Of a stretch of DNA of 43,947 nucleotides, positions 8,016-22,712 are shown piece by piece (the first letter of the stretch is position 1; the number at the start of each line of letters is the position of its first letter). The DNA is from Spirochaetota bacterium (GTDB taxonomy: Bacteria > Spirochaetota > Leptospiria > Turneriellales > Turneriellaceae), in assembly GCA_963205035.1 (NCBI GenBank), contig CAUJII010000065.1, positions 1 through 43,947 on the forward strand, read 5' to 3'. The notes under the pieces were generated by a model. That model saw only the letters and a program-made list of their open reading frames with translations, was not told where the DNA came from and made no database searches. A program made the position numbers and the translations under genes.

Positions 8016-8076
8016 GGTTTCTACGAACCACAGCCATGAACCTGCGTGGGAGTGCTCCGTCCACACGAAACTTGTT

Positions 8077-8280
8077 GGGGCGCGGGATAAATCCGGTGGG
8101 TATTCTTATGCTTTGCGAAAAATTGTGCCTTAAAGACTTTAGAAAATCACGAGCGCCGGCTTTTCCTTTTAGAAAAGCCTCGCATAACGGTTTGCAACCT
8201 GCTCGTGATTTTCATGGGCCATCAGTCTATAAGGCGGCAATATTTTTCGCTGTGACCCCACCGGATTTATCGCACGCCCT
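8077..8280. mobile_element. MITE-like/fold-back element with terminal inverted repeats and putative 7-bp direct flanking repeat ACTTGTT
   Basis: TIR gggcgcgggataaatccggtggg (8078-8100) versus ccccaccggatttatcgcacgccc (8256-8279); ACTTGTT at 8070-8076 and 8281-8287; nested complementary blocks inside. Confidence 0.7.
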
Positions 8281-8326
8281 ACTTGTTCTTCCTTGACGCT
8301 CTGTCTTTGACGCAAGGCGTTACGGC

Positions 8327-21565: not shown

Positions 21566-22672
21566 GTGTGGCACGGGCGCGGGATAAATCAGGTGGGGAT
21601 TCTTACGCTTAAGAAAAAAATTGCCCTGGGCTTTCTTGTAATAGTTATTACATTAGGCGCAATAAACTTTTCCTGGGTAGGCTATGTAGCGCACCTCGCA
21701 AGACACCAAGCGGGAGTTATTTTCGGCAAGGAAAAAATCGCAGAAAGACTCCAATCTCCCACGCTCGACGCGAATGAAAAAAACCTCCTCCAAGAAACTC
21801 TGAAGATTCGCGCTTTTCTTGAAAAAGCCTACGGCCTCCAAAACTCGAAAAGCTACCGTTATTTCTACGACTTGAAAAGAAATTACTTAGGATTCAACAT
21901 CACTGTAGTTCCGCGCTTTAGTCTCAAGCCCGAAGCGTTCCATTTTTGGCCGATCGGTAGCTTCGACTACTTGGGTTTTTTTGATCTGAACTTAGCCGAG
22001 TCCTGGGCGGAGCGCTACAGAAAAAAAGGGTACGATGTGTACCTTTCCGAAATCGGAGGCTATTCCACGTTGGGTTGGTTTGAGGACCCGCTCTATTCGA
22101 CGCAGCTCAAGGGCCGCGCGGTGGGGCTGGTTCTGCTCTTGGCACACGAGCTTGCGCACGAAAAACTCTATTTCAAGAACGACACGATGTTTTCGGAGCT
22201 CTTGGCGTCTTTTATTGAAAGAAAAGCAGCGCGGGCATACCTCATCGCAACGGGGCGCAAGGTGGCCAGCGAGAAAGAGAAAGAAGCATACGCACTCCTC
22301 GTTAAAACTTTTAGCGCTCGTGTCGATAAGCTCAAGATGGAGTTAGAAGCTCTATATAACCTTTCTATCGCCGACACGGAAAAACTCCACAAGAAGGAAC
22401 AGCTACTCGCCGTGTTTCGAGAGTGGCTCGTTGGCCACAAAACCCTCCGCCAAAAAATACCGGCGGCGCGCGAACTCGCTGCTATAAAAGATCTCAACAA
22501 CGCAGTTCTTGTGCAGTTCCATCGCTACAACCCCATGCGCACGCAATTTTCCACCGTCTATGAGAAGTGCGAAAAAGTTGCTCAACCGTTCGGCTGTTTT
22601 TTTGACGCTCTGGCGCCGTTAAAAGACTATACAAAGAACCAGCGCAGGGAGTGGTTAAAGGGCGCGGGATAA
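21566..22672 (+). CDS. predicted membrane-anchored aminopeptidase (COG4324/DUF2265-like)
   Basis: [44 protein letters not shown] zinc motif; start uncertain (GTG 21566 or GTG 21593). Confidence 0.85.
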
Positions 22673-22712
22673 AAAAAGGTTGACGCTGGTAATAAAAAAG
22701 TATGACTCAAGT

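What the first reader, a model, noticed from the sequence alone, without database searches (positions are those of the whole stretch)
8070..8287. Fold-back MITE-like element with 7-bp target duplication upstream of ilvB
Ends GGGCGCGGGATAAATCCGGTGGG (8078-8100) and CCCCACCGGATTTATCGCACGCCC (8256-8279) are inverted, and the pair is flanked by perfect ACTTGTT direct repeats (8070-8076, 8281-8287). Inside are nested exact complementary blocks: GCGAAAAAT 8115-8123/ATTTTTCGC 8242-8250, GCCTT..AGACT 8127-8138/AGTCT..AAGGC 8224-8235, AAAATCACGAGC 8143-8154/GCTCGTGATTTT 8201-8212, and GGCTTTTC/GAAAAGCC 8158-8179. Almost the entire element can fold on itself. It encodes no protein and lies in the divergent nitrilase/ilvB promoter region, so it could also act as a leader or regulatory RNA.
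Basis: seen in the sequence. Interest (0 to 1): 0.72.

Follow-up and report, generated by a model that had tools for sequence, protein, structure and literature searches.

The report
Foldback MITE with conserved RNA-like tip
The stretch upstream of ilvB is one of about 21 dispersed copies of a small non-coding mobile element that folds back on itself, and its innermost tip belongs to an uncatalogued, strongly conserved branched structure found across Turneriella bacteria inside several different element shells.

Summary
The same genome (an unnamed Turneriella-level MAG) holds about 21 near-complete copies at 83-90% identity and some 30 partial ones. Target duplications are significant over the copies, and four of five congeners have no such element upstream of ilvB. 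So it is a MITE, not an ilvB leader. No autonomous transposase was found.

A covariance model built only from other element families in three Turneriella genomes finds this tip as its sole hit in the window (E = 1.6e-7). That multi-branched tip covaries, shows a G-U excess on one strand, and recurs in different shells throughout Turneriella, including T. parva (>=25 copies), and in one other genus. Rfam has nothing like it. I read it as a MITE family carrying a selected structured RNA; the RNA's function is inferred. Caveats: MAG assembly could smooth the core; no expression data.

The parts
8069..8076 (.). left copy of the target duplication (AACTTGTT; ACTTGTT perfect)
   Evidence: sequence; boundary statistics over 37 elements
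8078..8100 (+). left terminal inverted repeat GGGCGCGGGATAAATCCGGTGGG
   Evidence: 59 matches of the end pattern in the genome, 0 for the reversed control
8101..8142 (.). left variable spacer arm, pairs imperfectly with 8213-8255
   Evidence: fold; variation by position
8143..8212 (-). conserved branched tip (core): closing stem 8143-8154/8201-8212 with two inner hairpins; RNA-model strand is minus
   Evidence: sole hit of covariance model R1 in the window, 33.2 bits, E = 1.6e-7; near-invariant among copies
8158..8179 (.). inner hairpin GGCTTTTC-CTTTTA-GAAAAGCC
8189..8199 (.). inner hairpin GGTT-TGC-AACC
   Evidence: sequence
8213..8255 (.). right variable spacer arm
8256..8279 (-). right terminal inverted repeat CCCCACCGGATTTATCGCACGCCC
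8280..8287 (.). right copy of the target duplication (TACTTGTT)
21575..21623 (+). solo left end of the same family (49 bp, 86%) at the 5' end of a long open frame, a deletion relic

Best explanation
8078-8279 is a non-autonomous foldback transposable element (MITE), here 'family A', inserted between a nitrilase-like gene and ilvB, just upstream of a short motif conserved before ilvB. A transposase acting in trans on the GGGCGYGGGATAAATC ends, making 8-9 bp duplications, most likely spread about 21 copies; that enzyme is now missing, degenerate or unassembled (inferred). Inside the element the innermost ~70 nt form a multi-branched structure that is conserved across copies, shells and species and covaries. 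I infer that when an element is transcribed from a neighbouring promoter the tip folds as an RNA on the strand GCAG...GAGGC (minus strand here), and that this RNA (a processing site, protein-binding site or 3'-end stabiliser) is what keeps the tip constant. Shown: copies, ends, duplications, absence upstream of ilvB in four of five congeners, tip conservation, covariation. Inferred: mobilisation in trans, transcription, RNA function.
For: About 21 near-complete copies with different flanks. TSD permutation test 0/5000 for family A alone (113 against 78.3 +/- 5.1) and perfect 8-9 bp duplications in sister families, e.g. TAGGTAAC, CCTATCGA, CTGGATAG. End pattern 59 against 0 reversed control. 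Core private changes 12/1349 against 88/2465 elsewhere, Fisher P = 1.2e-7. Model R1, trained without family A, hits the window tip at E = 1.6e-7 and other family A copies. 15 of 28 pairs with both-sided changes, 0 of 500 shuffles, score 0.459 against <=0.128 when slid. G-U 40 against A-C 6 in 63 distinct tips. Tip present in six of seven Turneriella-level genomes and one other genus of the family, nearly absent in 190 other Spirochaetota genomes.
Against: No autonomous partner: DDE_Tnp_1 none in this genome, IS1595 none, IS256-type only fragments without matching ends. No expression data. In family A itself the G-U/A-C balance does not single out the minus strand, and its copies show no orientation bias to genes. 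The core homogeneity within a draft MAG could partly be assembly smoothing of the repeat centre.
Confidence: 0.6

Rival explanations
1. An ordinary MITE whose tip is constant only because the source copies were constant or because the assembler smoothed the repeat centre; the tip has no function of its own.
For: The genome is a 255-contig, 82%-complete assembly; repeat centres are the hardest to assemble (inference). Sub-family variants occur. No transcription data.
Against: The same tip architecture is conserved with covariation across species, including T. parva, whose contig length equals the published 4,384,015-bp scaffold. Private changes should be uniform if unselected, and TIRs carry as many as spacers.
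Confidence: 0.2
2. A MITE whose tip is a DNA hairpin recognised as single strand or cruciform (by a transposase, integrase or nuclease), not an RNA.
For: Foldback form; nesting of one tip within another; deletion derivatives typical of palindromes.
Against: G-U against A-C excess of 40:6 on one strand points to RNA, though counted on an alignment fitted to that strand.
Confidence: 0.16
3. A cis-regulatory leader of ilvB (attenuator or riboswitch-like) that merely looks like an insertion.
For: It lies 47 bp upstream of the ilvB start. T. parva has a related nested foldback upstream of ilvB in the same orientation (L051:3391-3461).
Against: About 20 other copies lie at unrelated genes. Four of five congeners have nothing there. 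The T. parva element has a different shell, and the tip strand is antisense to ilvB in both. No terminator-like or promoter-like site was found in the scan.
Confidence: 0.04

Closest known systems
QMITE2 of Coxiella burnetii (PMC5896051, PMC10969869)
   Same: 150-190 bp, TIRs of 23-29 bp, variable duplications of 7-11 nt, tens of copies, full-length and small forms, mostly intergenic or 3' of genes, palindromic stem reported under purifying selection, origin of transposition unknown.
   Different: QMITE2 holds a GTAG REP that is an IS1111 target; none was looked for or noticed here. Here the tip is multi-branched, covaries and is shared by different shells across species.
NEMIS/Correia elements of Neisseria (PMC2229807)
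   Same: About 100-155 bp, ~24-bp TIRs, stable hairpin transcripts proposed to be cut by RNase III.
   Different: TA at the termini (PMC2229807); here 8-9 bp duplications and different ends; no RNase III data here.
ERIC/IRU of enterobacteria (PMC2229807)
   Same: Small imperfect palindrome with an RNA-level effect on mRNA stability.
   Different: Different sequence, TA termini (PMC2229807); a conserved branched tip shared among distinct shells is not known to me there.
IS256-type insertion sequences (possible parent)
   Same: 8-9 bp duplications and TIRs of this length are usual for that family (general knowledge); degenerate IS256-type fragments occur in this genome and in G005.
   Different: No fragment is flanked by the MITE ends, so parentage is not shown.

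Membership tests
MITE (prokaryotic, non-autonomous TIR element) | short, non-coding, with terminal inverted repeats | tested here: met
   202 bp, 23-bp TIRs, no gene
MITE (prokaryotic, non-autonomous TIR element) | multiple dispersed copies | tested here: met
   about 21 near-complete copies plus partial ones
MITE (prokaryotic, non-autonomous TIR element) | target site duplications of variable sequence | tested here: met
   8-9 bp; permutation 0/5000
MITE (prokaryotic, non-autonomous TIR element) | insertion polymorphism or empty site | tested here: inconclusive
   no element upstream of ilvB in G001, G002, G005, G006, but flanks are too diverged to show the exact empty site; no close strain held
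MITE (prokaryotic, non-autonomous TIR element) | autonomous parent with the same ends (helpful, not required: often missing in described prokaryotic MITEs) | tested here: inconclusive
   none found; draft genomes lose multicopy IS elements and several transposase families were not searched
Known Rfam RNA family (tip) | match to a curated covariance model | tested here: not met
   no match at gathering score in sister elements; only weak chance hits in the window and L117
Structured RNA (tip) | covariation beyond slid and shuffled controls | tested here: met
   15 pairs with both-sided change, slid controls 2-5
Structured RNA (tip) | transcription | not testable with these tools
   no RNA-seq held
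ilvB leader/attenuator | conserved with ilvB in relatives | tested here: not met
   absent in four of five congeners, other shell in T. parva

The most novel reading that the evidence does not exclude
The tip is an undescribed structured RNA (or hairpin cofactor) that is the conserved cargo of several different foldback shells in Turneriella and a neighbouring genus: MITE shells turn over while a selected RNA core is kept and spread genus-wide.
Probability: 0.5. Interest if true: 0.7.

Novelty: new variant of a known kind. Interest (0 to 1): 0.5.

Why it matters
Bacterial MITEs are usually seen as decaying copies held together only by their ends. Here the ends and arms drift while the innermost tip stays fixed across copies, and its branched architecture is kept across shells and species with covarying stems. 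That makes a testable case of a mobile repeat family that carries, and may be kept for, a structured RNA. It also describes a repeat family in a barely studied spirochaete genus.

Tried and rejected
Rfam searches gave nothing real (a c-di-GMP-I hit of 17 bits against a 35-bit threshold is chance). An exact-pattern scan of GTDB genomes gave seven single hits in unrelated phyla, about what chance gives for such an 18-mer in 264 Gb, and none holds the tip. Viral contigs and plasmids: no tip. Transposase searches by family found no partner. Hits of the model in G016 and G086 (about 25 bits) are judged chance over 199 genomes. One viral-contig search with ilvB failed for a busy machine and was not repeated as it was not needed.

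Full report
Check of the observation. The 218-nt stretch folds at -99.9 kcal/mol, z = -8.6. The element proper is 8078-8279. One base lies between each ACTTGTT and the inverted repeats; since the family as a whole makes 8-9 bp duplications, this copy is best read as TACTTGTT/AACTTGTT with an extra G on the left.

It is a repeat. The window belongs to a 2.6-Mb, 255-contig assembly (G000). Searching it with 8070-8287 gives 35 matches, about 21 of them near-complete (mostly 83-90% identity, one with an internal deletion, one with another element inserted in it). A pattern for the ends matches 59 times with up to three mismatches and 0 times when reversed. Congeners G005 and G006 hold a few ends of the same type; the other genomes of the class searched hold none. 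The genus is most likely Turneriella: congener G004 has a contig of 4,384,015 bp, the size published for the T. parva DSM 21527 main scaffold (PMC3746428).

Target duplications. Left and right flanks of 37 elements (21 of family A, 16 of the sister families B, C, D) match far better than re-paired flanks: 225 matches against 138.7 +/- 6.8, 0 of 5000; for family A alone 113 against 78.3 +/- 5.1. Sister families often show perfect 8-9 bp duplications. Family A duplications are more worn, so its insertions look older.

Not an ilvB feature. ilvB is found in the congeners. G001, G002, G005 and G006 have no such structure upstream of it in the stretches held; T. parva has a related but differently built, nested foldback there. 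A short motif, TTGACG followed by TGTCTTT-like sequence, just upstream of ilvB is shared by the relatives (by eye) and lies about 13 bp beyond the insertion, so the element sits just upstream of it and leaves it intact.

Solo ends and wear. Many single ends are short hairpin remnants in which most of the element is gone but the last bases of the far end remain (L084, L085, L089, L090, L094), or deletions at a short repeat (L088, AAATCA). This is how long palindromes usually decay (general knowledge). Window 21575-21623 is one such end at the start of a long open frame.

The conserved tip. In the alignment of 19 full family A copies, positions 66-136 carry 12 private changes in 1349 cells; the rest carry 88 in 2465 (Fisher P = 1.2e-7). 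The inverted repeats have as many private changes as the spacers, so the tip alone is held constant. Either the tip is selected after insertion or the assembly has smoothed the middle of the repeat.

Cross-species evidence bears on this. A second family in the same genome (B, 157 bp, ends GGGCGCGGGATTTGTTAGGGGGG) and families C (G005) and D (G006) have other arms but share a tip: AAGC-A-[GGCG..CGCC]-[GC UUUA GC]-A-[P4 hairpin]-GAG-GCUU. On eight tips, 96.3% of cells pair, 15 of 28 pairs change on both sides, none of 500 shuffles reaches this, and sliding the partner by 1-3 columns destroys it. A covariance model of these eight, which contains no family A sequence, hits the window once, at 8143-8212 on the minus strand, 33.2 bits, E = 1.6e-7, and other family A copies too. 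Family A is a subtype (CCG-UUAU-GC-GAG) that G006 also has, in another shell (L156, L163). This makes a functional tip likely, but it does not by itself prove that the exact invariance within family A is free of assembly effects.

Distribution. Over 199 Spirochaetota genomes the model hits six of the seven Turneriella-level genomes (not the fragmented G003), G009 of the same family, and two genomes at chance level. T. parva has at least 25 copies, in shells that often have an extra 5' hairpin and no GGGCG ends; in 11 of 20 the tip starts 22-50 nt after a same-strand open frame. Family A shows no such bias. The genome scan scored only 25 candidates per genome, so counts are lower bounds; the T. 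parva copy upstream of ilvB, for instance, was not in its list.

RNA or DNA. In 63 distinct tips the named strand has 40 G-U and 6 A-C pairs, the mark expected of RNA rather than DNA constraint. The alignment was fitted to that strand, the tips are related, and family A alone does not show it, so this is support, not proof. Rfam has no match.

Mobilisation. No transposase flanked by these ends was found: no DDE_Tnp_1 in G000 or G005 and one in G006, no IS1595 type, IS256-type fragments only. IS256-like enzymes fit the duplication length but nothing ties them to the ends. Draft contigs break at multicopy IS elements, so absence is weak evidence.

Comparison. The nearest described thing is QMITE2 of Coxiella: 150-190 bp, 7-11 nt variable duplications, full and small forms, 3'-UTR and intergenic sites, constrained stem (PMC5896051; PMC10969869). 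NEMIS/Correia and ERIC are functional parallels for hairpin RNA effects (PMC2229807). What differs here is that one covarying branched tip is shared by several shells across species. I found no paper on such elements in Turneriella, within an open-access library only.

Verdict. New member of a known kind in its body, new variant in its tip. Interest 0.5.

Noticed in passing
L033:2110-2320 (G000 contig 88): A second, unrelated foldback element (ends GAGCCTGTGCGGGAACTC, possible CATG duplication) is inserted in the right arm of a family A copy; the same end also abuts a family A relic in L093.
   Followed up: partly
L051:3280-3535 (T. parva, upstream of ilvB): A tip nested inside the hairpin loop of another tip, within a long outer palindrome; a further tip lies just downstream of ilvB (L165). 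Two related elements flanking ilvB in T. parva and one upstream of it in the window is unexplained and may be coincidence.
   Followed up: partly
L099:1460-1620 (G005 contig 139): A foldback with family A-like ends has at its centre ACCACAGAGGACACAGAGG-type repeats, a motif I recall from many bacterial genomes, instead of the usual tip.
   Followed up: no
window 22660-22682: The open frame that begins near the solo end at 21575 ends in GGGCGCGGGATAA, a second end-like sequence in direct orientation that supplies the stop codon; may be chance.
   Followed up: no
L225:3-146 (G000 contig 122, contig edge): IS256-type transposase fragment reading in frame into an unrelated membrane-protein remnant at a contig end; degenerate insertion or assembly join.
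   Followed up: partly
window 8292-8310 and ilvB upstream regions in L048-L052: Shared TTGACG / TGTCTTT-like motif shortly before ilvB, perhaps a promoter or regulator site.
   Followed up: no
G005: L100:1112-1185 and L124:9167-9240: 74-bp elements with family C ends but no tip, apparently deletion derivatives between GCAAC repeats.
   Followed up: partly
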